From contig JAUIKF010000039.1 of assembly GCA_030430575.1 (NCBI GenBank), positions 1 to 64,000 of the forward strand: a stretch of DNA of 64,000 nucleotides, read 5' to 3'. The translations under genes were made by a program, and so were the position numbers. Shown one piece after another: positions 8,978 through 60,059 of the stretch; position 1 is the stretch's first letter, and each line of letters opens with the position of its first letter. The DNA is from Bacteroidia bacterium. Its GTDB lineage: Bacteria > Bacteroidota > Bacteroidia > J057. The notes beneath the pieces are model-generated. The model worked only from the letters and a program-made list of their open reading frames with translations. It had not been told where the DNA came from and ran no database searches.

Positions 8978-11900
8978 ATGCGTCATCATTTACGATTGTT
9001 ACTCCCATTTGTATTGCTAGCCCTATGTGCAAGCCTGTTTTTCATTATCCAAAACCCTCCTGAAGCGAAAGTAGAAAAATTGCCTAAGATGCAACGCATC
9101 GACAAGGCGATGGAGTTGGAATTTGAAAAAACCAAAGACCCAGCCCTTGGCGTCGTGCCACGGGAACGATTAGGACCTGCAATGGCCTATGCCGATCGAT
9201 TGCGCAAGCAGCCTACTAGTACCCGTGCGGGAATTGTAGGCATTAACTGGACAGAGCGTGGCCCTAGCAATGTATCTGGCCGTACGCGCGCCGTTTTGGT
9301 AGATGCAGGTGATGTATCTGGAAATACGGTCTATGCCGGTGGCGTAGGTGGTGGCTTGTGGCGAACTACTAATGCGTTGGCTGGTAGCCCTACCTGGACT
9401 GCGATTAATAATATCGCAGAAAACCTCGCCATTTCGTGTATCTATCAGGACCCATCTGATTCAGACAATATCTACTATGGTACTGGCGAAGGCTGGTACA
9501 ATGTAGATGCAATTCGCGGTTTGGGAATCTTTGCTTCAACTGATGGAGGAGCTACTTGGGCACAACTTCCTTCTACCAATAATTCCAATTTTCATTATGT
9601 AAATAAGATCGTTGTAGATGGCTCAGGAAATGTGTTTGCCTGTACACGGTCAGGGCTGAGACGCTCTACCAATAATGGCTCGACATGGACCGAAGTACTC
9701 GGTGCTGGAAATGGCTCTTCCAATGATAATGCCATGGATATAGAAATTGCTGCCAATGGGGATATGTATGTTTCTATGGGAAGGTATTATCAGACCGATG
9801 GCATCTACAAATCTACGAATGGTGGTACGACATGGACCAAGCTTACAGGAGGAGGATTGCCTTCCTCTGGTTATGGCCGAATAGAACTCGCTTGTGCCCC
9901 TTCTAATCAGAATAGGGTATATGCCCTGTATCAAAGTACTTCCACCTATGATTGTTATGGAATCTATAGAACAGATAATGGAGGTACCTCATGGACGACA
10001 CTCAGCAATCCTGCTGCCTTTGGTATGTCAAATTTCTGTCGTGGCCAGGCATGGTATGACTTGATCTGTGCAGTGGATCCAAACAATGATGCGCGTGTAT
10101 TTATTGGAGGAATCGACATCCTTGTCTCTACCAACTCTGGTAGTAGCTGGACACAGATAGCGCAGTGGTATGGCGGAGGCGGCTACCAATATGCTCATGC
10201 TGACCAGCATGCGATGGTATTCCAGTCAGGAAGTTCCTCGGTGATGTATTATGGCAATGATGGGGGTGTCTACCGTAGTACCAATGCCAATGCGACTACC
10301 CCTACGATCAACTTTATCAGCAATGGCTATAATGTGACCCAATACTATGGCGCGGACTTAGCCAATGTTTATGGATCGAATAATTACCTCGCAGGGGCGC
10401 AAGATAACGGAACGCAGTATTACACTGCGCCAGGAATGAATGCAACGACAGAGGTAACTGGCGGGGATGGAGCCTATTCACATATTGACCAGGATCAGCC
10501 CAATATTCAGATTTCACAATACGTCTACAACCAATACCGCGTCACCAATAATAGTTGGGGAAGTTATACAAATGTAAATATTAGTTCTTCGGTTGGTCTT
10601 TTTATTAACCCTTCAGACTATGATAGTGATAACAATATTTTGTATGGAAGTTATAATAACAATGCTTATTCTTATATCAGCGGGGTAGGGAGTTCCAATT
10701 CTACTGGCTCCCGAAGTGTCTCATTAGGCGGTGGCGAAGCAACGGCCCTCAAGGTCTCTCCCAATGTCAACAACCGCCTCTATATTGGGACCAACCTGGG
10801 AGATGTATATAGAATAGATAATGCGCATACGGCCAGTTCCACTGTCACGCAGATTCGCAATGCGTCCAATTACGTCTCTTGTGTGGAAATACAGCCGGGA
10901 GACGAAGATCACATCATTGTGACCTATAGCAATTTTGGCGTAACCAGTGTCTATGAAACCACCAACGGCGGTACCTCTTGGACCAGTGTAGAAGGCAATC
11001 TGCCAGATATGCCCGTCCGCTGGGCCTTATTTGCCCCAGGAGAGTCTGACCAAATGCTATTGGGTACTGAGGTCGGCGTTTGGAGCACAGATGATTTGGA
11101 TGGTACCAGCACTACCTGGGACCCCTCCAACGGCGGCCTTGCCAATGTCCGTACGGACATGCTTCAATATAGGACCAGTGACCAGCAGGTCATTGCTTGT
11201 ACACATGGTCGTGGCCTTTATTCTACAGATCACTTTAATATTCCGCTGACGTGCCCTACCACAGTTTCTTCTTTCCCCTATGGAGAAAGCTTTGAGTCTG
11301 GTTTAGGGGATTGGACATATGGGGGAGGCGATTTTGAGTGGATCAGAAATTCTGGAACTACGCCTTCCTCAGGTACAGGGCCTTCTGGTGCACATGATGG
11401 TTCTTTCTATATGTATGTGGAGGCTTCAAACCCCAACTATCCTAGTAAAACGACCTATTTTGTAGGTCCTTGTTTTGACCTTACGGGACAATCTGCTGCT
11501 TCCCTAAGTTTTCGCTATCATATGCTAGGTGCCCCAGGAACCCTTCAACTGCAGGCGAGTACAGATTTTGGAAGTACCTGGCCTTCCACTGTATGGTCTA
11601 TCTCGGGTGACCAAGGAAGTACATGGAATCTGGCTAATGTCAGCCTGAATTCATTTGCTGGTGGTAGTGTGAGGCTGCGATTTGTCGGTACTACAGGAAC
11701 TACCTGGCAAGGAGATATATGTATAGATTCACTTAATATGACAGTTTCTAGCGGAGCGCCGCCGCTAGTTGCGTCAATTTCAGGTAGCACAGATGTTTCA
11801 TGTAATGGTGGCAATGATGGTTCTGCCACGGCTAGTGCTACAGGCGGAACACCTCCTTACACTTATTTATGGTCGGATGGCCAAACTACAGCCACAGCCA

Positions 11901-14900
11901 CAGGCCTTGCGGCGGGAAACTATTCAGTTACCGTGACAGACAATGCAAGCGCTACTGATGTGGCCAATGTGACGATTACAGAACCTTCTGCCGTCAGTGT
12001 TTCTTCTAGTGTGACAGATGTGAGTTGTTTTGGAGGAAATGACGGATCAGCGACGGCCAATCCTTCTGGCGGTACGCCAGGTTACACCTACCTCTGGTCA
12101 GATGGTCAGACGACTCAAACTGCTACGGGGCTTTCTCAAGGAAATTATAGCGTGACTGTCACAGATGCGAATGGTTGTACAGAAGTAGACAATATTACGG
12201 TTGATGAACCGAATGCGCTGAGCACTACTGCTTCCGCAACTGATGCGAGTTGTAATGCTGGCAGTGATGGGACAGCTACTGCTAGCCCTGTAGGTGGCAA
12301 TACGCCTTATACCTACCTTTGGTCAGATGGCCAGACAACGGCCACAGCTACAGGCTTAGCTGCTGGCAATTATTCAGTGACTGTCACTGATGCCAATGGC
12401 TGTACGGGCAATGCCAACGCTACAGTAGGTGAACCATCAGCCATTTCTGTTGGTACCTCGACGACTGATGCTTCTTGTAATGGAGGTACAGACGGAACCG
12501 CTACCGCTTCTCCTTCAGGCGGCACGCCGGGATATACTTACCTCTGGTCTGATGGCCAGACCACGGCTACCGCTACGGGCCTAGGTGCTGGTAACTACTC
12601 GGTAACGGTTACTGATGCTAATGGATGTACAGCCAATGCCAATGTTACCGTCAGTGAGGCGACTTCCTTAGTTGTGACGGCTAGTGGAACTGATGTTAGC
12701 TGTAACGGGGGAAATGATGGAACAGCTACTGCTGGTGTAAGCGGCGGCACAACTCCTTATACTTATTTATGGTCAGACGGCCAGACCACAGCTACAGCTA
12801 CGAACTTGACAGCTGGGAACTATTCCGTGACTGTTACGGATAATGTCGGTTGTAGTGCCTTGGATAATGTAACAATAAATGAACCTTCTGCCCTTTCGGC
12901 TTCTGCCAGTGCAACAGATGTCAGCTGTAATGCAGGGAATGATGGAACAGCTACTGCTTTTGGATCGGGTGGCACACCGAGTTATAGTTACCTTTGGTCA
13001 GACGGCCAGACGACTGGTACGGCTACAGGTCTCATAGCCGGCAATTATTCAGTGACGATTACCGATGCGAATGGCTGTACAGATGTTGCAAATACAACTG
13101 TGAGCGAGCCTTCAGCGCTTTCCGCTTCTGCATCTGCCACAGATGCCTCATGCAACGCTGGCAATGACGGAACGGCTACCGCTAGTCCTACTGGTGGTAC
13201 GCCTGGTTATACCTACCTCTGGTCTGATGGCCAGACCACAGCAACAGCGACGGGGCTTGCCGCTGGTAATTACAGTGTCACAGTTACTGATGCGAATGGT
13301 TGTACGACCAACGCAAACACTACTGTGGGTGAACCGTCGGTAGTCACGGCCACAGCAAGTACTACTGCCAATGCCTCTTGTAATGCTGGCAATGATGGAT
13401 CAGCAACAGTCGCCGCTGGCGGCGGAACACCCGGCTACACCTACCTCTGGTCTGATGGCCAGACGACTGCCACAGCCACGGGCTTGGCTGCTGGTGCATA
13501 CACAGTCACAGTGACAGACGCTAGTGGCTGTACGGCAAATGATGGCGTGACAATCACAGAACCATCTGCCTTAAACCTCTCTATTTCAGGAACAGACGAA
13601 TCTGCCCCAGGAGCCAACGACGGTGCCGCTGACTTGACCGTTTCTGGTGGCACCCCTGGTTACACATTCTTATGGAATACAAGTGCGACTACTGAGGATA
13701 TCAGTGGCCTTGCTGGCGGAACTTACGATGTCGATGTCACAGATGCCAATGGCTGTACAGCCAATGAAGCTGTGGTCATAAATACCATTACCCCAAGTTC
13801 CCTCCGCCTCAATACAGGCGTATTAACGTCCGTAGGCGAAACTTGGCAGACCGTAAACTTAGGGGATTCCTATACTTCTATGGTAGTCGTTGCGACTGTA
13901 GTTATGCCTAACTCCACTGTTGATCCAGTGGTTACACGTGTTCGCAACGCATCGGGCAGTAGCTTCCAACTGAAGATTCAGTCTACGACTGGAAGCGCTA
14001 CTTCTTCTACTTATGATGTGCATTATTTTGCAGTGGAAGAAGGGGTTTATACCGTGTTGGATGATGGCGTAAAAATGGAAGCGGTTAAATTTAACTCTAC
14101 CGTTACGGCGGAAAATAATAACTGGGCATTTGAGGCTCAGACTTATGCCAATAGCTATACTAGCCCAGTAGTCCTCGGCCAAGTCATGACGGAAAACGAT
14201 GCAGACTGGTCTGTATTCTGGGCTTCTGAGAATGGGAGTCGTACCGATCCTCCATCTGCTTCCAGCTTTGCAGCTGGTAAAAATGTAGGAGAAGACCCTG
14301 ATAATACCCGTGCCAATGAAATCGTAGGGTATGTGGTATTTGAATCAGGAAATGGTACGATAGAAGGGCTGGGCTATGCAGCAGGCGTAGGAGCTGATAT
14401 TGTTTTGGGAGTAGATAATACCACAACAGGATACAATTATCCGATTAGTGGCCTCTCAACTGCTTCCGTAGCAGTTCTTAGTGTAGCAGCTATGGATGGC
14501 GGTAATGGCGGATGGGCTACGCTCTACGGCGCAAGTCCGGTAAGCACCAGTCAGATCGTCGTCGTATTTGATGAAGACCAGGAAAATGATTCGGAAAGGG
14601 CGCATACCAGTGAGCAAGTCGCCTACATCGTCTTTGAAGATCAGCCTGATCCATGTGCGGGTTTCACTGCTTCTGCCTCCGCTACTGATGCAAGTTGCAA
14701 TGGCAGCAGTGACGGAACGGCAACTGCCTCTCCTAGTGGAGGAACTGCACCTTACACCTACCTCTGGTCTGATGGCCAGACCACTGCCACTGCCACTGGC
14801 TTAGCCGCTGGCAGCTATACTGTCACCGTCACTGACGATGAGGGATGTGACGCCAATGCTGGCGCTACAGTGAATGAGCCATCGGCTGTTACTTCTGCAG

Positions 14901-16765
14901 CTACAGCTACCGATGTAAGCTGCAATGGCGATACAGATGGTACTGCCTCTGCCAATGCCTCTGGAGGCACAGGACCTTATACCTATCTTTGGTCTGATGG
15001 TCAGACGACGGCCACTGCTACAGGCCTAGCGCCTGGAAACTATACTGTGACTGTCACAGATGCCAATGGATGTACAGGAAATGGAAATGCTACTGTTGGT
15101 GAGCCTTCGGTACTTTCTTCTACCGCTTCAGGCGTTGATGTGAGCTGCAATGGTGGAAGCGACGGTTCTGCGTCTGCTAACCCTTCTGGTGGTACTTCAC
15201 CATATAGTTACCTCTGGTCAGACGGTCAAACGACTCAAACAGCCATCAACTTGGCTAATGGAAACTATACTGTGACTGTCACAGACGCCAACGGCTGTAC
15301 AGCCAATGCAAATGCCTCTGTCACTGAGCCTTCAGCCTTGAGCTTAAGCATTGCTGGAACCGATGAGTCTGGCGCTGGCAACAACGATGGAGCCGCAGAC
15401 CTGACCGTCTCAGGCGGTACCCCAGGCTACACCTATTCCTGGTCAAATGGCGCCACCACTGAAGACATCAGTGGACTCGCAGGGGGCACTTACGACGTAG
15501 ACGTCACTGATGCCAACGGCTGTACAGCCAATGAGTCAGTCGTAATCAACACTGTTGGCGGACCCGCTTTCCTTACGGAGAATGGGGTAGTGAGCAGCGT
15601 AAGCGAATCTTGGCAGACAGTTACCCTTGCCAATACCTACACTTCTATGGTGGTTGTAGCGACTGTCCATTTGCCTAATAACACCACAGATCCAGTAGTA
15701 AGTCGAGTAAGAAATGCTTCAGGCAACAGCTTCGATCTTCGTATCCAATCTATGACAGGATCAGCTACTGTGTCTACTTATGATGTGCATTATTTTGTGG
15801 TGGAAGAAGGCGTTTATACAGATGCGGCAGATGGGGTAAAAATGGAAGCAGTGAAAGTCAACACTTCTTTGACCTCAAGGAAAAGCAATTGGGTATTTGA
15901 AGCAAGAACGTACAGTAATAGCTATACTAACCCTGTGGTAGTAGGACAAGTCATGACTGTGAATGATGCAGATTGGTCTGCCTTCTGGGCGTCTTCTACT
16001 ACTAGTAAAAATACCCCACCAACTGCTAGTAGCTTCGCCGCTGGTAAGCATGTCGGCGAAGATCCTGACAATACGCGTCTAGACGAAACGATCGGCTATG
16101 TGGTCTTCGAAGCAGGAAGTGGAACCATGGGATCTGTAGACTTCGAGGCGGGTCTTGGTTCGGACATCGTCCGAGGAGCCACGAACTCAAGTTCAGGCTA
16201 TAATTATAGCCTTTCCAGTCTCGCTACTGCTACAGCAGCAGTTTTGAGTTCTTCTGCGATGGATGGAAATGATGGCGGCGTGGCAACGCTATTTGGAGCT
16301 AGCCCGCTAAGCACAAGCCAGATCACCATGGTAGTGGATGAAGATCAAGAGAGTGATAGTGAAAGAAACCACACGACTGAGCAAGTCGCTTATGTCGTGT
16401 TTGGTACAGCTACTACGGGTGCTCAGTTAGGTGGAGATGTTGCGATCGATATCAATCATACCGAAGAGAATCTAGGGACAAGCATTCTTGCTCCTGAAGT
16501 GAAGGGACCCGCCTTTACCTACTATCCGAATCCTGTTCGCAATGGGGAACTATTTGTGTCCTTCGAGCAGGCTACTGCTGGGCAGTATACCTTGCGCGTC
16601 TTTGACATGAAAGGCAAACTGGTCCTCAGTCAGCAAGGCACCCTCGAAGCAGGGCCTCAAAAGAAAATGCTCCAAGTTGATCATCTTGCCAATGGATATT
16701 ATCACCTTCAACTGATTGCACCTGGTGTGAAGCAGACAGGTAAGTTTGTGAAGATGAATTGGTAG
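8978..16765 (+). CDS. giant T9SS-secreted SprB-repeat protein with BNR/sortilin-like propeller
   Basis: 2595 residues. Signal peptide or anchor at 1-27. Residues about 70-755 form a repetitive beta-propeller with BNR/sortilin-like blades (STDGGATW, STNNGSTW, STNGGTTW, TTNGGTSW). Residues about 770-925 resemble a MAM/jellyroll domain. From about 930 come nine SprB-type repeats of about 75 residues (SCNGGNDGSATA..GGTPPYTYLWSDGQTT..GNYSVTVTDANGC), then a 290-residue module (about 1606-1894). Four more SprB repeats follow, then a second copy of that module (about 2195-2482). The tail (about 2520-2595; YYPNPVRNGELFVSF, ending GKFVKMNW) is a T9SS type A sorting domain. SprB repeats are known from the gliding adhesin SprB. 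The protein is probably a cell-surface adhesin or secreted matrix protein. Nearby repeats are similar at DNA level, so copy number may vary. Confidence 0.93.
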   Translation: MRHHLRLLLPFVLLALCASLFFIIQNPPEAKVEKLPKMQRIDKAMELEFEKTKDPALGVVPRERLGPAMAYADRLRKQPTSTRAGIVGINWTERGPSNVSGRTRAVLVDAGDVSGNTVYAGGVGGGLWRTTNALAGSPTWTAINNIAENLAISCIYQDPSDSDNIYYGTGEGWYNVDAIRGLGIFASTDGGATWAQLPSTNNSNFHYVNKIVVDGSGNVFACTRSGLRRSTNNGSTWTEVLGAGNGSSNDNAMDIEIAANGDMYVSMGRYYQTDGIYKSTNGGTTWTKLTGGGLPSSGYGRIELACAPSNQNRVYALYQSTSTYDCYGIYRTDNGGTSWTTLSNPAAFGMSNFCRGQAWYDLICAVDPNNDARVFIGGIDILVSTNSGSSWTQIAQWYGGGGYQYAHADQHAMVFQSGSSSVMYYGNDGGVYRSTNANATTPTINFISNGYNVTQYYGADLANVYGSNNYLAGAQDNGTQYYTAPGMNATTEVTGGDGAYSHIDQDQPNIQISQYVYNQYRVTNNSWGSYTNVNISSSVGLFINPSDYDSDNNILYGSYNNNAYSYISGVGSSNSTGSRSVSLGGGEATALKVSPNVNNRLYIGTNLGDVYRIDNAHTASSTVTQIRNASNYVSCVEIQPGDEDHIIVTYSNFGVTSVYETTNGGTSWTSVEGNLPDMPVRWALFAPGESDQMLLGTEVGVWSTDDLDGTSTTWDPSNGGLANVRTDMLQYRTSDQQVIACTHGRGLYSTDHFNIPLTCPTTVSSFPYGESFESGLGDWTYGGGDFEWIRNSGTTPSSGTGPSGAHDGSFYMYVEASNPNYPSKTTYFVGPCFDLTGQSAASLSFRYHMLGAPGTLQLQASTDFGSTWPSTVWSISGDQGSTWNLANVSLNSFAGGSVRLRFVGTTGTTWQGDICIDSLNMTVSSGAPPLVASISGSTDVSCNGGNDGSATASATGGTPPYTYLWSDGQTTATATGLAAGNYSVTVTDNASATDVANVTITEPSAVSVSSSVTDVSCFGGNDGSATANPSGGTPGYTYLWSDGQTTQTATGLSQGNYSVTVTDANGCTEVDNITVDEPNALSTTASATDASCNAGSDGTATASPVGGNTPYTYLWSDGQTTATATGLAAGNYSVTVTDANGCTGNANATVGEPSAISVGTSTTDASCNGGTDGTATASPSGGTPGYTYLWSDGQTTATATGLGAGNYSVTVTDANGCTANANVTVSEATSLVVTASGTDVSCNGGNDGTATAGVSGGTTPYTYLWSDGQTTATATNLTAGNYSVTVTDNVGCSALDNVTINEPSALSASASATDVSCNAGNDGTATAFGSGGTPSYSYLWSDGQTTGTATGLIAGNYSVTITDANGCTDVANTTVSEPSALSASASATDASCNAGNDGTATASPTGGTPGYTYLWSDGQTTATATGLAAGNYSVTVTDANGCTTNANTTVGEPSVVTATASTTANASCNAGNDGSATVAAGGGTPGYTYLWSDGQTTATATGLAAGAYTVTVTDASGCTANDGVTITEPSALNLSISGTDESAPGANDGAADLTVSGGTPGYTFLWNTSATTEDISGLAGGTYDVDVTDANGCTANEAVVINTITPSSLRLNTGVLTSVGETWQTVNLGDSYTSMVVVATVVMPNSTVDPVVTRVRNASGSSFQLKIQSTTGSATSSTYDVHYFAVEEGVYTVLDDGVKMEAVKFNSTVTAENNNWAFEAQTYANSYTSPVVLGQVMTENDADWSVFWASENGSRTDPPSASSFAAGKNVGEDPDNTRANEIVGYVVFESGNGTIEGLGYAAGVGADIVLGVDNTTTGYNYPISGLSTASVAVLSVAAMDGGNGGWATLYGASPVSTSQIVVVFDEDQENDSERAHTSEQVAYIVFEDQPDPCAGFTASASATDASCNGSSDGTATASPSGGTAPYTYLWSDGQTTATATGLAAGSYTVTVTDDEGCDANAGATVNEPSAVTSAATATDVSCNGDTDGTASANASGGTGPYTYLWSDGQTTATATGLAPGNYTVTVTDANGCTGNGNATVGEPSVLSSTASGVDVSCNGGSDGSASANPSGGTSPYSYLWSDGQTTQTAINLANGNYTVTVTDANGCTANANASVTEPSALSLSIAGTDESGAGNNDGAADLTVSGGTPGYTYSWSNGATTEDISGLAGGTYDVDVTDANGCTANESVVINTVGGPAFLTENGVVSSVSESWQTVTLANTYTSMVVVATVHLPNNTTDPVVSRVRNASGNSFDLRIQSMTGSATVSTYDVHYFVVEEGVYTDAADGVKMEAVKVNTSLTSRKSNWVFEARTYSNSYTNPVVVGQVMTVNDADWSAFWASSTTSKNTPPTASSFAAGKHVGEDPDNTRLDETIGYVVFEAGSGTMGSVDFEAGLGSDIVRGATNSSSGYNYSLSSLATATAAVLSSSAMDGNDGGVATLFGASPLSTSQITMVVDEDQESDSERNHTTEQVAYVVFGTATTGAQLGGDVAIDINHTEENLGTSILAPEVKGPAFTYYPNPVRNGELFVSFEQATAGQYTLRVFDMKGKLVLSQQGTLEAGPQKKMLQVDHLANGYYHLQLIAPGVKQTGKFVKMNW
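11765..13785 (+). repeat. nine tandem SprB-type coding repeats (about 225 bp each)
   Basis: In-frame repeats of about 75 codons, each carrying Cys in SCN, the YLWSDGQTT core and a VTDANGC end. A second block of four is at about 14665-15560. The last repeat of each block is a divergent type (SGTDES..TTEDISGLAGGTYDVDVTDANGC) that directly precedes the 290-residue module. The repeat-module unit therefore appears to have been duplicated as a block. Confidence 0.85.
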
Positions 16766-28328: not shown

Positions 28329-29774
28329 CTATCTCAGTTTCAGCGTTGCAAAGGCCAGAATCGCAAGCGCCACGGATACGATCAGGAATCTCATGACAAT
28401 TTTGGACTCATGGATGCCTTTCTTTTCGTAGTGGTGATGCAATGGGGACATCTTGAATATCCGCCTGCCTTCTCCATATTTCTTCTTCGTATAGCGGAAG
28501 TAAGTCACCTGAATGATCACTGAAAGGGTTTCTGCTAAAAACACCCCACAAATGATCGGAATCAGGAGTTCCTTTTTCACCATCAGTGCCATTACCCCTA
28601 TTGCCCCGCCTAATGCCAAACTTCCCGTGTCTCCCATGAATACCTGAGCGGGAAAGCTATTGTACCAAAGGAACCCAATGCATCCTCCGACAAGTGCGGT
28701 TCCATAGACCACCAATTCTGACGAGAGGGGTATGTAGCTGATGTTCAGATAACTAGAGAAAATCGCATTGCCTGATACATAGGCAAAAATGGCTAAGGTT
28801 GTGCCCGTAATGGCAGAAGTCCCTGCTGCTAGACCGTCAATTCCATCCGTCAAATTGACGGCGTTTGAAAGGGCTGTGATGATGAATATCACCACAAGCA
28901 GGTAGACGATCCTCCCCAAAATGCCTTCTTCAATGAACAGCTCCAGGATTCGGATCTTGGAGTAATCAAATACATACTCTTTGAAAAAGGGGAAGTCTGT
29001 GCGGTACACAAAGCTTTTGTCCCTTGGTCCAAAGATTTCATTGGCAACCTGTGAGCGAATCGCCGGCGCAATGGTCAGCGTGATTTCCTCAGGTTCTTTA
29101 TCATAATCAATCTCATTCTCCTCAAAATGGGGACGGTTGACCAAGTAGGTATGCAAACTGTCATACTTCTCCGCTCCAGGGTAGGTCTGCAATTCAATTC
29201 CATTGATCGCCACGACTTCATCCCCGCTCTTAAACCCTTGATTGATAAGCAGTTGACTGCCCGTAATCCGATTCAAACTAGTGATGTGCTTGCGACTCCC
29301 CATGAAGTCAGGGTGGTACAACATGACCAGTCCTACAATCAAGCCCAGTGAAACTTGGCCTACGATCTTAAATCGCCCTTTGAGCCCTGCTTTATCCTTT
29401 TTGAAAACCTTGATGTAGTCATCAATAAAACCGATGGTTCCCATCCAAATCGTTGCTAGCAGAATGAGCCAGACATAGCCATTTTTCAAATCGCCCCACA
29501 AAAGGGTCGGAATCACGATAGCGGCGATGATGATGACTCCCCCCATAGTTGGTGTTCCTCTTTTATGGGCATGGTCGGGTCCTAAACTGCCTTCCCTTAC
29601 CACCTCACCGATCTGCTTTCTCCTCAATAGGTTGATGATTTTTTTCCCAATGAGCAATGAAATGATCAATGAAAAAATAATGGACATCATCGCCCGAAAA
29701 CTGATGTACTGAAACACCCCAAAACCAGGTATATTGTATTGCGCATCAAGCCAGTCAAGTAGATAGTATAGCAT
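28329..29774 (-). CDS. mraY: phospho-MurNAc-pentapeptide transferase MraY with a PDZ-like insertion
   Basis: 481 residues against about 360 in E. coli. It transfers phospho-MurNAc-pentapeptide to undecaprenyl phosphate to make lipid I. Catalytic motifs are present: [12 protein letters not shown] (about 116-127), [12 protein letters not shown] (about 307-318) and PLHHHYE near the C-terminus. An insertion of about 130 residues (about 155-285) sits between transmembrane segments. Its first part ([18 protein letters not shown], about 178-195, ending EEITLTI near 235) has the carboxylate-loop style of a PDZ domain. Bacteroidota MraY proteins often carry an insertion here, but a PDZ-like one was not expected. 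It starts at ATG and is followed 2 bp later by murD. Confidence 0.95.
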
Positions 29775-29885
29775 GAGGAAGGTTTTAAGTTCTAGGTTCT
29801 AGGTTCTAAGGAACAATTGAATACATTATTGATCATCACCTATCTATTAATCAGTTATTTTTCATTAACAATTGACAATTCACCA

Positions 29886-54242: not shown

Positions 54243-57200
54243 TTATGGACTTATAACTTTCCCATCTTTATCTATCTCAAATGTTCTCCCCTCTTTACTC
54301 ACTCTAGCCTTGCCTTGAAAAAATCTGGTACTACTATCGTATTGCAATTCAATCACTACCCTACCTGTTTTATCAATAAAGCCCCATTTTCCCTTTTTCT
54401 GGACAGCGGCAAGACCTTCTGAGAAGTCCAGAGCATTGTCGTATTCCGCGACGATCTGAACTTTTTCATCAACGCTGACATAGCCAAATTTATCGAGAAC
54501 TTTTCCGATGGCTAATCCTTCCTTGAATTGCCAGCCTTTTTTAGAAACAGGTTCGACAATTTCTCCCTGGGGACCAATCACATACTCCTTTCTTCGACTA
54601 GGAGATACCTGCTGGATCTGCGAATCTTGTTGCTTCATATCTTGTTCCATCTGGTCTTGAGGGCATGGCGGTATACAAGTACCTGTCTTGTCAATGAAAA
54701 AGGAAAATTTGCCTTGGACGACAGATGCTTTACCATTATGGAAGTGATCTACTCGATCATATTCCAGCGGAATAATCAACACCTGGTCTTCATTTACAAA
54801 TCCATACTTACGCCCATCTGTAGCTTTAGCCATTCCTTCAGCAAAGGGACCTACCACTTTGAAATCCCTGCTTCCTCTAGGCCTATTCAAGTTGGTAACG
54901 GGAGACTTTGCTTGCAAGACGTGATCACAGCTGTAGTCCTTATAAGGTTTACAATTCCCTTCTGCATCAATATAAAATGTCACTTCATCCTCCACTACAC
55001 AAGCGATTATACCTGCTTGATTTAGGCGTGCCTTGATCTGGTCATACCGTGGCGAAATCACTTCCTTTCCATTCACATCAATGAAGCCCCACTTATTATT
55101 TCGTTTGACGGGCGCTAGCCCATCACTAAATTCAAATGCCTCGTCATATTTGAAACTGACAGCAACCATTTCCTTCCCATCTTTCTCCGTAATAAAACCG
55201 TATTTACCATTTTTTATCGCTAATCTTCTCCCATTTGGTGCTTTTTCAGCTTTATCATCATAGAGGTCTGAAAAAGCTGTAGATGCCTGATTCCCTCTAT
55301 TTTCCATCACTACATTCAAATCTTGTCGAGGCATATTTTCTATACTAGCCAGATCTGTGGGCTTTTCAGGGTTCGCAATATTGTGCGGGGTTGGCTGGTT
55401 TCCTATCATGCCTACTATTTGGCCTGTTTGTTGGTTAAATGGCAAAATCTTGTCATAATCTGCAGGAACAATAAAGCGCCCTTGTGTTCCAATCACACCG
55501 TACTTATTGCCTTGCTGAACCACAGAATAGCCATATCGATCAAAGGGTTCTACGGATTGGAAATCTATAGGAATTCTCACTTGGAAAGTGGAATCGGCAA
55601 ATCCCCAGGCGCCACCTTTCCGCACAGGGATCAGCCCGTAGGATATCCGGCCTGCCTGGATTTCATCAAACATGACTGTCCCAGCTTTATCGATCAGCAA
55701 CTGACGACTACCCAACCAAACCACGGCATAATCTCCACGAAAAGAGGAGACGACATCATAGGTTGGTGAAATAACGGGATTATTGCTATCGTCTACGAAG
55801 CCCCATTTCCCATTTTGTCGGACGGGTCGCCGCCCTTCGCGTAGATTGCCCCAGTCTTCATAAGCAAGGAGGAGCTGGCACGTAGGGGCTTGTAACTGGC
55901 AAATAGATGCCCGAAGGCCGCTATCCTTAGGGAAGTCGAGGTATACTCGACTGAGCAAAACCTGAATAGCTGTGCTATCCAATAAGGTGCTGTCTCGCTC
56001 TCTCAAACGGATCAAGTCTTGAAGGCCCTGCCAGCGGAAACTGGTTCCTACAGTTGCTGGGCGGTAGAGATAACTCAAGCCCCTGCCCATCAAGGCTTCA
56101 TTCATGGCAGAATCGCGGCTCAGGACTTCGGTGAAGTCTTCGATCGCCTGTTCAAAGTCGCGCATGGCATAGGACGTCATGCCTCGCCCATAGCGGGCTT
56201 CCTTCCAATAACTGCTATCAGCCTTGCCGCTTGATGAAATAGTCCATAATACGTCTGTTTGTTCATAGCTTGCCATCAGGTAGGTCCCATCTTTGGACAT
56301 AGAAAAGGCCTTCGGGGCCGTAGTAGGCACAGCAATTTCATCTCTCGTCTGTTGTGGGGGCAATTGATCAGGAGCAAAGGTCAAGAGTTTCCGCCCGTAT
56401 AAGTCCCAGGCTGTGATTTCTGGCCCTTCTCCAGATATGAGGATATTGCTCCCATCTGCGGTGAACTTAGCTGCTTTTAGCGGACCTGACCGCGCATTTA
56501 CCCGCAATACTTCTTGCCCATTCAAGTCCCATAGCCTGAAAGTACTGTCTTCTGAAGCAGTTAAGATTAATCCTCCTAAAGGCGAAAATTCTACCGTGTT
56601 GATAGGCCCTCTATGGCCCAGCAAGATCGCAGAGCGAATACCCGATTGCACTTTCCAGAGTATCCCTATCCCATCAGTAGCTACGCTAGCAAGCCACTCT
56701 TCATTGGGAGAGAAGGCCACATTCACTACCGGGGCTAAATGTTCTTCCAGGGTATGGAAGAGGGTATTGGAGTTTTGATCCAGGATTCTAGTGACCTGAG
56801 CCTCCTCTGCAATAGCGAGATATGTACCCCTTGGAGAAGCTGCGCAAGCATAAGGACTACCTTGATAATCTTCTGGTTTAATGGTTGCCAATCGAAAATC
56901 AGTTATAGGGTTCCGTAGTTCCAATCCCCCTCCTCGAAATGAAGCGTTGATTTCATCCTTCCTACCCTTCACAAAACTCACCCATTCAATCTCTCCGGCA
57001 AAATCTTTCAAAGTGTATCCTTCCCCTAAAGTATTGCCAGGCAAGATATTGTAACGGGTGATGCGTTTTCCCGAAATATACAGCACATACTTTCCATCAG
57101 GAGACACCAATCGCCACCCCGAAGCGGGCGCATTCGTAGTAGGGTCCAACGGCCGTCGCAAAAGGAATGGTTGTATTTTGTGGCGAGGAGATAAGTGAGA

Positions 57201-60059
57201 CTCATAGGCCATGGCATCTGTGAAATCCTGAAAAGCATTGCCCAGATACCTGACATCTTCCGTGTTGGATCCCAATTCATACGCCAATTGATAATTGGCG
57301 AGGGCACGATGGTAGTACATCAGGGGATCGGGTCGGCGCCCAGCAGTAGTCACGAGGGCCTCGTTGAAGTGATTATATGCATCTATAAAACGCGCATTCT
57401 GATAATCACGGATGCCCAGAAAGTCGTAATAGCGCGCGCTGTCTTTGGCCGTTTTTAAATAATAATGCCCTCCGCCCTCAGGATCTTTTTCGATATAGCG
57501 CTGACTGACGGGCTCGCACATATACAGGAGGGCCATAATCGGGATAAGGAGGAGGAATAAAACCCTTGAGCGGAAGCCTAAGAATGGGATACCTTGGGTA
57601 AAAAGCATCCTGTGCCACTTCTGGGGCACCATTTTGCGAATGAAATAAGGCTTGCCGCGCTCCATGTGACGCAAAGCCACCGTATCTTCCAGCTCTTCGC
57701 GGATGAGCATGCCTTGCACTTCCTCTTTGAGTTTGCGCTTCGCCGCCCCTTTGGACTCGTCCAATTCCCACTTCTGGACTGCCAACTGCCTGCGGCATTG
57801 GTGAGCAGCAAAAGAGTCCTGCTGGGCAGGGTATTTCTCTAGCAGGGAAACGATCGCATGACGCGCACGTTTCTCCACCGCAGGGTCGAGGGCATCGACC
57901 ATGAGCAGCCTCAAGTCATCAGGCAATTTTCCCTGACGGAAATAGGGCAGGCGCACCAGTTCGAGGAGATGGGTTTCAGTCAAAAGAGGCGGAGCATCGG
58001 GACGGGCCTGCTGCAAGGCATAGCCCAAATACAGGGTCAGGTCCCATTGCAATTCAGGATAGAGTGCGCAGCAACTCAGCCACTCAAAACAGGCAGGGCC
58101 TAAATACGTTTCTAGCCGCGCAAAGACTTCCTGCGGTTTAGCCAGATCGTCTGCAAAAAAAGGCGCTACAGGCTTTTCATTCCGCTTCAGCCAGTACCGC
58201 AGGCTGATAGGCTCATCCTTCCCAAACTGGTCCACCAAGGTGCCCAGGCTCTCGATAGAGGCTGGGAGAACAAGGAAGTTTTTTGCTAATGATACCTCCA
58301 AATAGCTCCAATCTCCTGTACTTCGTGGCGTCAATACCGCCCGTTCTTCCCATTGAAGAAAGTCAAAGGCAGCGCCTGTCAATTCGCCCGAAACCGCATC
58401 TACCAGCGCCGTACCATCTCCCATGATGAGCAAGCGATGATCTGGATAGCGAACCTTCAGTTCCTGTAAGTAGACAGGCCGCTGGTCCAGTCGCTTCCAA
58501 AATACCTCAAAGTCATTTTGATAGAAGTATACATCTACATAGATGTCTTCAATCTTTAGCTGATCCGTCAACTGCTCAAATAGCTTCGCTTGATGGTCTT
58601 TATAAGACTTGCGATCTATCAGAATCAGGTATTCCGAAGGGCGAGAGCCTGGACGATATTGCACATTCGGATATCCGCCTGCTTCAATAGTCGCCTGAAT
58701 AGTCGCAGGCATATCCACCACGGAAGTCTCTCCTGTCTGCCGTCTGCGAAGCTGACGCGCAGCCTGGTTGAAGCCTTCGTCTTCAAAAAGCGGCAACGGC
58801 TTTGGGAGATTGAACTGATAGTGAAAAGGAGGCTTTACCGCTTGGCGCTTGCGGAGATGAGACCAGATTTTATTTTTTTTATAAATCACCAAACTGACTA
58901 CTGCAATGACAAAGGCCATGACCATTAATAGCCGGATAAGAGAAGCAGTTCGGGGGAGCCAGCCAATTTTGAGGTCGTCAATATTCCGACCGATGATTGG
59001 GGCTGGAAGCAGCGAAACCAGTTTTTGAAGCGGATTTGGAGCCTCTAGGGTAAGGCTTTGGTATAAAATGGCCTCAAGGCCTGTTTCAGTCGTGATGGTC
59101 AGGGAGACGATATACGTCCCAAAATCAGCAAAGCGATGTTCCGGATTCTGTTCGGTTGAAATAAGGCCGTCCCCAAAGTCCCACTGATAGCTTGGCGTTT
59201 TTGCATTGCCCAAATAAGAGCTATCCTTAAAGTACACCACCGGCTCTACGGGGTCCGCAGTATAGGAAAAATAGGCCCTGGGCTGGTTGGCAAGGGCTGC
59301 GGAGTCGATGGTGGTAGGCACAACCAAGTTTCGACATATCACTTGCCGACAGTCTTCGGGGTTCTCCACCGTAAGGCAAATAGAATAATCTCCTGGCTCA
59401 TTGAAGATGTGGCTGGGATTCTTCAAGGAGGAGCCTGAGCCGCCAAAGTCCCATTCGTAGCGAATGACATCCCCTTTAGAATCATCTGTAAAGGTCACTT
59501 GACGGCTGCCATCGGGCAGGGGCAGGACGTCTTCTGAGAAAAAATTCGCCGTCAGGCGGTCGCAAGCTTGGGAAAGCCCAAGCAGTTGACGTAAGGCAAA
59601 TTTGCTGCGGTTCTCAAAATTATTGTCGAGGTAATAGGTCTCTAGGTATTTGGGAGCTGCGCGGAAAGCATGGTAGCCCTGCCAAGCTACATAGATAAAC
59701 AGCACCATAAACAGCGTCGCTGCACCCACAAAAATCCATTTGGAGATCGGCAGAATGCGATCCGCAGGCGTAGGCAATCGGTCGTCTTCCGTTGATTCCT
59801 GTTCTTCCGATCCCCACACAAGGTGCGCCACCAAATCAAAATAGCTGTCATACAGCCGGTAGAACTTTTCTTGTTCCTTGGGCGTCTTCGCAAAGAGCGG
59901 ACACATCAGGGTCTTCAACGCTTCTTGAGAAACCTCACCTTCCAACTGATTCAGCAAGTGCTGAACCTGGAAAATATGATCCACCCCGACTGAAAAGCCG
60001 TTCTCTCGCAGGTAATCGAGAAAGCCCTCAAAGGGCACGAAGGTGGAGGTAGGGTCCAA
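54243..60059 (-). CDS. giant membrane sensor: CoxE-like, PKD, vWA-like, TPR, WD40 and WG repeats
   Basis: 1938 residues, apparent TTG start. Residues 1-85 (FEGFLDYLRENGFSVGVDHI..KEQEKFYRLYDSYF) resemble the N-terminus of MoxR-partner CoxE/vWA proteins. TM1 is about 107-127. Two PKD domains follow (YEWDFGGSG, YQWDFGDGL; about 185-340), then TM2 about 374-393. A vWA-like domain (LILIDRKSYKDHQA at 478-491, LLIMGDGTALVDAVSGEL at 543-560) precedes a helical region. TM3 is about 830-846, then TPR-like helices, WD40 repeats (about 1070-1230; SEDSTFRLWDLNG) and about nine WG repeats (about 1400-1938; KWGFIDVNGKEVI). Positive-inside charges put the vWA part in the cytoplasm and the PKD, WD40 and WG parts outside it. 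It follows the MoxR and CHAT genes. Confidence 0.88.
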   Translation of the reverse strand: MDPTSTFVPFEGFLDYLRENGFSVGVDHIFQVQHLLNQLEGEVSQEALKTLMCPLFAKTPKEQEKFYRLYDSYFDLVAHLVWGSEEQESTEDDRLPTPADRILPISKWIFVGAATLFMVLFIYVAWQGYHAFRAAPKYLETYYLDNNFENRSKFALRQLLGLSQACDRLTANFFSEDVLPLPDGSRQVTFTDDSKGDVIRYEWDFGGSGSSLKNPSHIFNEPGDYSICLTVENPEDCRQVICRNLVVPTTIDSAALANQPRAYFSYTADPVEPVVYFKDSSYLGNAKTPSYQWDFGDGLISTEQNPEHRFADFGTYIVSLTITTETGLEAILYQSLTLEAPNPLQKLVSLLPAPIIGRNIDDLKIGWLPRTASLIRLLMVMAFVIAVVSLVIYKKNKIWSHLRKRQAVKPPFHYQFNLPKPLPLFEDEGFNQAARQLRRRQTGETSVVDMPATIQATIEAGGYPNVQYRPGSRPSEYLILIDRKSYKDHQAKLFEQLTDQLKIEDIYVDVYFYQNDFEVFWKRLDQRPVYLQELKVRYPDHRLLIMGDGTALVDAVSGELTGAAFDFLQWEERAVLTPRSTGDWSYLEVSLAKNFLVLPASIESLGTLVDQFGKDEPISLRYWLKRNEKPVAPFFADDLAKPQEVFARLETYLGPACFEWLSCCALYPELQWDLTLYLGYALQQARPDAPPLLTETHLLELVRLPYFRQGKLPDDLRLLMVDALDPAVEKRARHAIVSLLEKYPAQQDSFAAHQCRRQLAVQKWELDESKGAAKRKLKEEVQGMLIREELEDTVALRHMERGKPYFIRKMVPQKWHRMLFTQGIPFLGFRSRVLFLLLIPIMALLYMCEPVSQRYIEKDPEGGGHYYLKTAKDSARYYDFLGIRDYQNARFIDAYNHFNEALVTTAGRRPDPLMYYHRALANYQLAYELGSNTEDVRYLGNAFQDFTDAMAYESHLSPRHKIQPFLLRRPLDPTTNAPASGWRLVSPDGKYVLYISGKRITRYNILPGNTLGEGYTLKDFAGEIEWVSFVKGRKDEINASFRGGGLELRNPITDFRLATIKPEDYQGSPYACAASPRGTYLAIAEEAQVTRILDQNSNTLFHTLEEHLAPVVNVAFSPNEEWLASVATDGIGILWKVQSGIRSAILLGHRGPINTVEFSPLGGLILTASEDSTFRLWDLNGQEVLRVNARSGPLKAAKFTADGSNILISGEGPEITAWDLYGRKLLTFAPDQLPPQQTRDEIAVPTTAPKAFSMSKDGTYLMASYEQTDVLWTISSSGKADSSYWKEARYGRGMTSYAMRDFEQAIEDFTEVLSRDSAMNEALMGRGLSYLYRPATVGTSFRWQGLQDLIRLRERDSTLLDSTAIQVLLSRVYLDFPKDSGLRASICQLQAPTCQLLLAYEDWGNLREGRRPVRQNGKWGFVDDSNNPVISPTYDVVSSFRGDYAVVWLGSRQLLIDKAGTVMFDEIQAGRISYGLIPVRKGGAWGFADSTFQVRIPIDFQSVEPFDRYGYSVVQQGNKYGVIGTQGRFIVPADYDKILPFNQQTGQIVGMIGNQPTPHNIANPEKPTDLASIENMPRQDLNVVMENRGNQASTAFSDLYDDKAEKAPNGRRLAIKNGKYGFITEKDGKEMVAVSFKYDEAFEFSDGLAPVKRNNKWGFIDVNGKEVISPRYDQIKARLNQAGIIACVVEDEVTFYIDAEGNCKPYKDYSCDHVLQAKSPVTNLNRPRGSRDFKVVGPFAEGMAKATDGRKYGFVNEDQVLIIPLEYDRVDHFHNGKASVVQGKFSFFIDKTGTCIPPCPQDQMEQDMKQQDSQIQQVSPSRRKEYVIGPQGEIVEPVSKKGWQFKEGLAIGKVLDKFGYVSVDEKVQIVAEYDNALDFSEGLAAVQKKGKWGFIDKTGRVVIELQYDSSTRFFQGKARVSKEGRTFEIDKDGKVISP

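What the first reader, a model, noticed from the sequence alone, without database searches (positions are those of the whole stretch)
28329..29774. MraY with a PDZ-like domain inserted in a loop
MraY here is about 120 residues longer than usual. The insertion includes [18 protein letters not shown] and an EEITLTI strand, the usual PDZ signature arrangement. A peptide-binding domain on the lipid I synthase would be a new way to link precursor synthesis to another envelope protein. Bacteroidota MraY insertions are known, but not, to my knowledge, PDZ-like ones.
Basis: partly seen in the sequence, partly recalled or inferred. Interest (0 to 1): 0.6.

Follow-up and report, generated by a model that had tools for sequence, protein, structure and literature searches.

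The report
PDZ domain inside cell-wall enzyme MraY
In one branch of the Bacteroidota, the essential enzyme that makes the first membrane-bound cell-wall building block carries an extra outward-facing domain of the PDZ type, closest to a domain of an envelope-stress protease, which may let proteins outside the membrane dock on or regulate cell-wall precursor synthesis.

Summary
The ORF at 28329-29774 (-) is the only MraY found in this genome, in a dcw cluster. Residues about 160-258 are inserted between TM4 and the periplasmic beta-hairpin. The insert is a PDZ domain: its family profile matches the first PDZ domain (PDZ-N) of RseP site-2 proteases at E about 1e-18, against 0.0025 for the best of 40 column-shuffled controls. 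AlphaFold gives most of the RseP-type permuted PDZ order. Structure matches are individually weak; those I could identify are PDZ proteins. The ordinary Bacteroidota MraY loop shows no such relation. The insert is in all 20 own-order genomes that could be judged, and in two other family groups of the class. Without outgroups one strongly supported branch separates insert from no-insert MraY; with outgroups this is less clear. It is constrained, but less than the enzyme body. Saprospirales is not supported, and peptide binding is unproven: the groove helix is short and the carboxylate-loop position only suggestive. No such architecture turned up in the literature searches. Best guess: a periplasmic docking or regulatory domain on lipid I synthase.

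The parts
28329..29774 (-). mraY, 481 aa, the only MraY found in the genome
   Evidence: ORF; TIGR00445 346.8 bits; the only other match in the own genome is a 383-aa WecA-type relative at 33% identity (the type is my reading of its sequence)
29001..29297 (-). insert, residues about 160-258, between TM4 (model helix 133-153) and the periplasmic beta-hairpin
   Evidence: alignment with 8 other-class MraY, whose loop has only 6-7 residues between the .P.F motif and the hairpin motif; region length 85-99 against 25-51 aa
29028..29285 (-). PDZ domain, residues 164-249: betaC about 164-170 (irregular), alphaA 174-178, betaD 186-190, betaE 193-194, alphaB 201-206, betaF 209-214, betaA 229-234, helix 237-248
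   Evidence: AlphaFold models; hhalign with RseP PDZ-N E 3.1e-18; element names by analogy with the RseP permutant described in PMC8098476
29199..29237 (-). PDZ signature [13 protein letters not shown], residues 180-192; G180, F181 and D185 invariant in 28 inserts
   Evidence: alignments A2 and A1
29133..29147 (-). betaF YLVNR, residues 210-214; R214 invariant
29091..29132 (-). betaF-betaA hairpin [14 protein letters not shown], residues 215-228; longest in the own genus, 3 to 12 residues longer than in most other rows
   Evidence: alignment A2
29028..29066 (-). helix 237-248 ending at F248-G249 (G249 invariant, F248 at least 90%); possible place of the carboxylate-binding loop
   Evidence: alignments A1, A2; model; structural rows that end near here
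28962..29000 (-). conserved MraY periplasmic beta-hairpin [13 protein letters not shown], residues 259-271
29418..29423 (-). D118-D119, invariant active-site aspartates
   Evidence: invariant in A1; role of the A. aeolicus equivalents D117, D118 from PMC4790310 passages; residue mapping is mine
28629..28631 (-). D382 in FMGDTGS, invariant; mapped to A. aeolicus D265
   Evidence: invariant in A1; catalytic role of D265 in PMC4790310 passages; residue mapping is mine
28431..28439 (-). HHH 446-448, invariant; taken to contain the equivalent of H324
   Evidence: invariant in A1; catalytic role of H324 in PMC4790310 passages; residue mapping is mine

Best explanation
The insert is a PDZ domain of the circularly permuted, site-2-protease (RseP PDZ-N) type. 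It was gained, most likely once, in the periplasmic TM4-TM5 loop of MraY in one part of the class and has been kept since in the only MraY copy. Shown here: PDZ relationship, position, distribution, constraint on the sequence. Inferred: it faces the periplasm and works as a docking or regulatory module, holding a periplasmic or inner-membrane partner of the wall-building or division machinery next to the enzyme that makes lipid I, so that precursor supply and use are coupled in place. The partner is unknown. My confidence is about 0.93 for PDZ identity, 0.7 for one origin, and 0.4 for docking as the main role. The number given is for the whole statement.
For: Profile of inserts against RseP PDZ-N: hhalign E 3.1e-18, about as strong as RseP PDZ-N against RseP PDZ-C (3.4e-19); against RseP PDZ-C 2.7e-10; against the ordinary MraY loop nothing. 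Best of 40 column-permuted controls 0.0025, reversed 0.15; each half alone (20 and 8 rows) still reaches 1.5e-17 and 9.9e-16; the window row alone 1.7e-10. Insert profile against the PDB: the 9 best rows are A. aeolicus RseP (4.6e-5 to 7.1e-4), then an uncharacterized protein (4ghn), DegQ, other RseP and DegP. In the own genome the insert profile's best match outside MraY is RseP PDZ-N (23.3 bits; next 12.1) although PDZ_2 occurs at 13 places. Full MraY model pLDDT 77.5, insert blocks 69-92; insert alone 80.8. One branch, SH-aLRT 100, separates 31 insert from 36 no-insert MraY. pN/pS is below 1 in the insert in all 8 pairs, and the insert is more conserved than the ordinary loop at equal body identity.
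Against: No single insert appears to reach a Pfam PDZ cut-off of 27 bits (best PDZ_6 E 0.00081 among 28). In the PDB profile search the best hits cover only about 34 profile positions, and the best single stretch has i-Evalue 0.19; the low whole-chain E-values come from two PDZ domains added. Foldseek of the insert model: best E 0.021, none at or below 0.001. Best VIA Z 5.7, none 8 or more. For peptide docking: alphaB is short and betaC irregular in the models, residues of betaC and alphaB are not conserved between families, and in RseP itself the PDZ tandem is described as a size-exclusion filter whose putative grooves face the membrane. The insert changes faster than the body in all 8 pairs. 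In the outgroup-rooted tree the insert group needs 2 changes and is one side of a branch in 36% of bootstrap trees. No partner was looked for.
Confidence: 0.45

Rival explanations
1. The domain is PDZ by descent but no longer binds peptides. It is a structural cap on the periplasmic face of MraY that stabilises the loop or the dimer, much as the RseP PDZ domains act as a steric filter rather than a classical C-terminus binder.
For: Fold positions (GF..GD, Y.V.R, FG) are invariant or nearly so across 28 inserts while betaC and alphaB, which would line a groove, differ between families. AlphaB is about 6 residues. RseP precedent in PMC7728848 and PMC8098476 passages.
Against: The invariant G249 after F248 stands near where the permuted PDZ has its carboxylate loop; some structural rows of E. 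coli RseP PDZ-C end there. PDZ ligand specificity normally changes between lineages (recalled), so variable groove residues do not exclude binding.
Confidence: 0.35
2. The PDZ domain is a tolerated, nearly functionless spacer that arrived by duplication from rseP and persists because MraY works with it.
For: The insert has the higher pN in all 8 pairs compared; in the 3 pairs with finite (but high) dS, dN/dS is 0.10-0.53 against 0.03-0.10 in the body. The loop is already variable in other Bacteroidota, and an unrelated long loop exists in G056 (L111).
Against: Present in all 20 own-order genomes that could be judged, and its core residues are kept. Identity in the insert exceeds that in ordinary loops at equal body identity.
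Confidence: 0.13
3. It is not a PDZ domain but an ordinary elongated Bacteroidota MraY loop with a chance GF.xGD match.
For: Single-sequence Pfam scores are below cut-off; structural scores are modest.
Against: Profile-profile E 1e-18 with clean shuffle controls; the ordinary loop shows no similarity to the insert or to RseP PDZ-N; the listed PDB profile and structure matches are dominated by PDZ proteins.
Confidence: 0.04

Closest known systems
PDZ-N domain of RseP-type site-2 proteases (here from genomes of the same phylum)
   Same: Best-scoring relative of the insert among those compared (E about 1e-18; best outside MraY in the own genome); same order of elements as far as the models show; lies in a periplasmic loop between transmembrane helices of an inner-membrane protein (PMC7728848 passages)
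   Different: Host protein is a GT4 phosphotransferase without HExxH or LDGG; one PDZ instead of two; shorter alphaB than most RseP PDZ-N in the alignments; chain runs on into the MraY beta-hairpin
MraY of known structure (4j72 A. aeolicus, 8g01 and 8tlu E. coli)
   Same: Body folds the same (Foldseek E 1e-18 to 6e-18, TMt 0.81-0.87 for these entries); active-site residues kept
   Different: 4j72 is described with a periplasmic beta-hairpin and helix and no further domain in the passage seen (PMC4790310); these chains are 360-365 aa
DegP / DegQ / DegS HtrA PDZ domains
   Same: PDZ fold, VIA Z 4.6-5.6 in the listed rows
   Different: Weaker sequence relation (insert profile E 0.017 or worse); not permuted (recalled)
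Ordinary Bacteroidota MraY periplasmic loop
   Same: Same place in the protein, also longer than in E. coli
   Different: 25-51 aa in 35 rows, no PDZ signature, hhalign finds nothing

Membership tests
MraY (lipid I synthase) | family model above curated cut-off | tested here: met
   TIGR00445 346.8 bits, cut-off 192.05
MraY (lipid I synthase) | catalytic D, D, D and H residues | tested here: met
   D118, D119, D382 and HHH446-448 invariant in 27 rows; roles from PMC4790310 passages; mapping mine
MraY (lipid I synthase) | dcw gene cluster | tested here: met
   FtsZ, FtsA, Mur ligases, MurG-type GT28, FtsW, transpeptidase and MraW families around it
MraY (lipid I synthase) | enzymatic activity | not testable with these tools
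   needs an assay
PDZ domain | sequence relation to known PDZ families | tested here: met
   profile level; single sequences stay below Pfam cut-offs
PDZ domain | fold | tested here: inconclusive
   model has a PDZ-like order of strands and helices and the structure matches I could identify are PDZ proteins, but Z 5.7 at most and Foldseek E 0.021 at best
PDZ domain | carboxylate-binding loop and groove | tested here: inconclusive
   invariant G249 and near-invariant F248 at a fitting place; alphaB short; coordinates of the model not available to me
RseP-type circularly permuted PDZ | order betaC-alphaA-betaD-betaE-alphaB-betaF-betaA-loop-betaB | tested here: inconclusive
   betaC to betaA agree with models and hhalign; betaB not clearly formed; break between betaB and betaC and betaF-betaA hairpin taken from PMC8098476 passages
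site-2 protease (M50) | HExxH and LDGG metalloprotease motifs in the protein | tested here: not met
   absent in the window protein, present in all 35 RseP sequences tested; so only the domain is related
Pept_S41_N_bact (PF21558) | family model above curated cut-off | tested here: inconclusive
   12 of 28 inserts match at E up to 1, best E 0.00012; window row 13.8 bits, cut-off 27; match covers only about 30 residues

The most novel reading that the evidence does not exclude
MraY in this clade is a transmembrane-regulated enzyme. The periplasmic PDZ domain reads a free C-terminus or a folding state outside the membrane, as PDZ domains of envelope-stress proteases do (DegS recalled), and passes it through TM4/TM5 to the cytoplasmic active site, so that lipid I synthesis is gated by the state of the wall or envelope.
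Probability: 0.12. Interest if true: 0.85.

Novelty: new variant of a known kind. Interest (0 to 1): 0.55.

Why it matters
MraY is near-universal, essential and an antibiotic target, and its contacts are usually discussed on the cytoplasmic side. A conserved interaction-type domain on its periplasmic face gives a natural system in which to ask whether precursor synthesis is physically tied to, or controlled by, the machinery outside the membrane. It also looks like a domain that moved from a stress protease into a cell-wall enzyme.

Tried and rejected
Chance GF.xGD match: rejected by shuffle controls. Ordinary Bacteroidota loop as an eroded PDZ: hhalign found nothing. PDZ in MraY elsewhere in the phylum: of 31 genomes with a hit of the insert profile among 395, one is the own MraY; of the 30 others, the 29 fetched as loci all carry HExxH and LDGG and are taken as RseP; G255 was not fetched. 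In the class (395 genomes) 49 have a hit: 29 at E 2.2e-12 or better (16 own order, 12 f50, 1 f120), of which 28 were fetched and read as MraY with the insert and G294 is an unread 225-aa fragment; and 20 weaker ones (9e-8 to 1e-5), of which 11 were fetched and are RseP and 9 are judged by ORF length alone. G056 looked like a carrier but has an unrelated loop.

Rows dropped: own-order genomes G002 (no match, 56% complete) and G009 (gene cut by contig end) could not be judged; G020's gene is split between two contigs and only its front part enters A2 and A3. One search used 35 of 80 named no-insert loci plus L111; one search dropped 19 of the 67 rows and added 8 outgroup rows, of which 3 did not group with the other 5. 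A4 leaves out 5 of 35 RseP sequences (L137, L138, L139, L141, L149, close copies by eye) and A5 these and L162. The RseP set was collected with the insert profile, so the comparison with it is somewhat favoured; the PDB search and the own-genome ranking do not share that bias. Of 8 dN/dS pairs, 5 had infinite dS and the other 3 a high one (1.0-3.0), so the ratios are rough. The tree is a quick one, without bootstrap or outgroup.

Structural placement of F248-G249 on the carboxylate loop: VIA rows of E. coli RseP PDZ-C (7w6x, 3id2, 3id3) end at model residue 95 (I247) on residue 304; the end of a truncated model is unreliable, so I do not claim it. A literature search for I304 found nothing. 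One search prints residue numbers one too high; numbers in this report follow. Not done: a search for partners; MraY in other phyla; naming the order. That the genome is of the Bacteroidota is inferred from the named MraY relatives.

Full report
Observation. The ORF at 28329-29774 (-) encodes 481 aa and is MraY (TIGR00445 346.8 bits). It sits in a dcw cluster: Pfam families of FtsZ, FtsA, three Mur ligases, a MurG-type GT28, FtsW, a PASTA-bearing transpeptidase and MraW surround it. It is the only MraY found in the genome: the one other match is a 383-aa GT4 relative at 33% identity. The catalytic aspartates and the HHH motif are invariant in 27 rows.

The insert. In 8 MraY of other classes of the phylum the loop after TM4 runs from a .P.F motif over 6-7 residues to the T.PF.K-type motif of the hairpin; here the same stretch has 101 residues, about 94 more. 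I take residues 160-258 as the insert. The region is 85-99 aa in 31 insert-bearing MraY and 25-51 aa in 35 ordinary Bacteroidota MraY. In the full model (mean pLDDT 77.5, insert blocks 69-92) four long helices precede it and six follow. Since MraY has both ends in the periplasm (PMC4790310, passages seen), the loop after TM4 is periplasmic; this is a deduction, not a test.

Identity. One sequence alone is weak against Pfam (PDZ_6 14.1 bits, cut-off 27), but 17 of 28 inserts match PDZ_6, 12 the N-terminal domain of Bacteroidetes S41 peptidases, 5 PDZ_2 and 4 PDZ at E up to 1. A profile of 28 inserts finds RseP PDZ tandems first in the PDB (whole-chain E 4.6e-5; best single stretch only 0.19). 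Against PDZ-N of 30 RseP it scores E 3.1e-18, against PDZ-C of 29 RseP 2.7e-10; RseP PDZ-N against PDZ-C is 3.4e-19. Forty column permutations reach at best 0.0025, the reversed profile 0.15. The ordinary MraY loop gives nothing against the insert or RseP. In the own genome RseP PDZ-N is the best match outside MraY (23.3 bits, next 12.1), although PDZ_2 occurs at 13 places. The insert model alone (pLDDT 80.8) shows irregular strand, helix, strand, short strand, short helix, strand, a small hairpin, strand, helix. Foldseek's best E is 0.021 and VIA's best Z 5.7, so the structural match is weak by itself. The rows I could identify are PDZ-bearing proteins (for MamP, M61 and DUF512 proteins this is recalled).

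Anatomy. PMC8098476 (passages) states that both RseP PDZ domains are circular permutants with the chain break between betaB and betaC and a hairpin joining betaF and betaA. The insert fits that order: betaC about 164-170, alphaA 174-178, betaD 186-190, betaE 193-194, alphaB 201-206, betaF 209-214, betaA 229-234, then a helix 237-248 that ends at F248-G249. PMC7728848 (passages) mentions a capping helix over the putative groove of RseP PDZ-N; whether 237-248 is its counterpart is my inference. The window's own genus has the longest betaF-betaA hairpin.

Distribution and origin. Own order: 22 genomes searched; the insert is seen in 20, one has no MraY match (56% complete) and one has the gene cut at a contig end. 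Class sample: 49 of 395 genomes match at 1e-5 or better; 29 at 2.2e-12 or better (16 own order, 12 f50, 1 f120), of which 28 were read as MraY with the insert and G294 is an unread fragment. Phylum sample: 31 of 395; apart from the own MraY, all 29 others fetched are RseP and one was not fetched. With the insert columns left out, one branch (SH-aLRT 100, quick tree) separates 31 insert from 36 no-insert rows. With 8 outgroup rows the no-insert group stays one clade (100/99), but the insert group needs 2 changes, because 3 outgroup rows on long branches fall beside it at a weakly supported fork (89/91); 36% of bootstrap trees keep it as one side. One gain is the simplest reading; an early gain with later loss in the other lineages is not excluded.

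Selection. pN is higher in the insert than in the body in all 8 pairs, and pN/pS below 1 in all. In the three pairs with finite dS (1.0-3.0, so rough), dN/dS is 0.15, 0.53 and 0.10 in the insert against 0.03, 0.10 and 0.03 in the body. At body identity 0.75-0.80 the insert keeps 46% identity (58 pairs), the ordinary loop 31% (16 pairs); at 0.65-0.70 it is 33% (73) against 21% (302); at 0.60-0.65 27% (65) against 21% (157) (pairs are not independent). So it is constrained, but less than the enzyme.

Function. Inferred only: a periplasmic interaction domain on lipid I synthase. A docking role is my first choice, a structural or steric role close behind. RseP itself is reported to use its PDZ tandem as a size-exclusion filter, which warns against equating PDZ with peptide binding. 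I did not look for partners.

Novelty. Searches for MraY with PDZ (4 papers; 5), MraY loop insertions (20 of 21 listed), the MraY hairpin (4) and PDZ with peptidoglycan, periplasmic, lipid II and Bacteroidetes (12 of 26 listed) gave no paper whose title or shown abstract start describes a PDZ domain in MraY. Beyond these listings I saw only passages of PMC4790310, PMC4929429, PMC8098476, PMC7728848 and PMC6411480. The census of microbial PDZ proteins (PMC6411480, passages) sorts 93% of 7,852 proteins into 12 families; no word beginning with glycosyl or transferase occurs in its text. Subscription papers and preprints were not searched. I rate it a new variant of a known kind.

Noticed in passing
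L111 (G056:C208:2500-5532): A MraY of 468-aa frame with a long loop unrelated to the PDZ insert and, by eye, rich in N, D and K: a separate loop expansion within the class.
   Followed up: partly
L154 (own RseP, G000:C127): RseP of the own genome: the stretch after PDZ-N reads ALFIPD where some RseP (L124, L127) have SIGI or FIGL; several other RseP in the set also lack that glycine.
   Followed up: partly
window 8978-16765 (+): 2595-aa protein with SprB repeats, a MAM domain and a secretion-system C-terminal sorting domain.
   Followed up: no
window 54243-60059 (-): 1938-aa protein combining PKD, WD40-type propeller and WG repeats.
   Followed up: no
window 29775-29885: No murF between murE and mraY: only 111 bases separate the two ORFs.
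   Followed up: no
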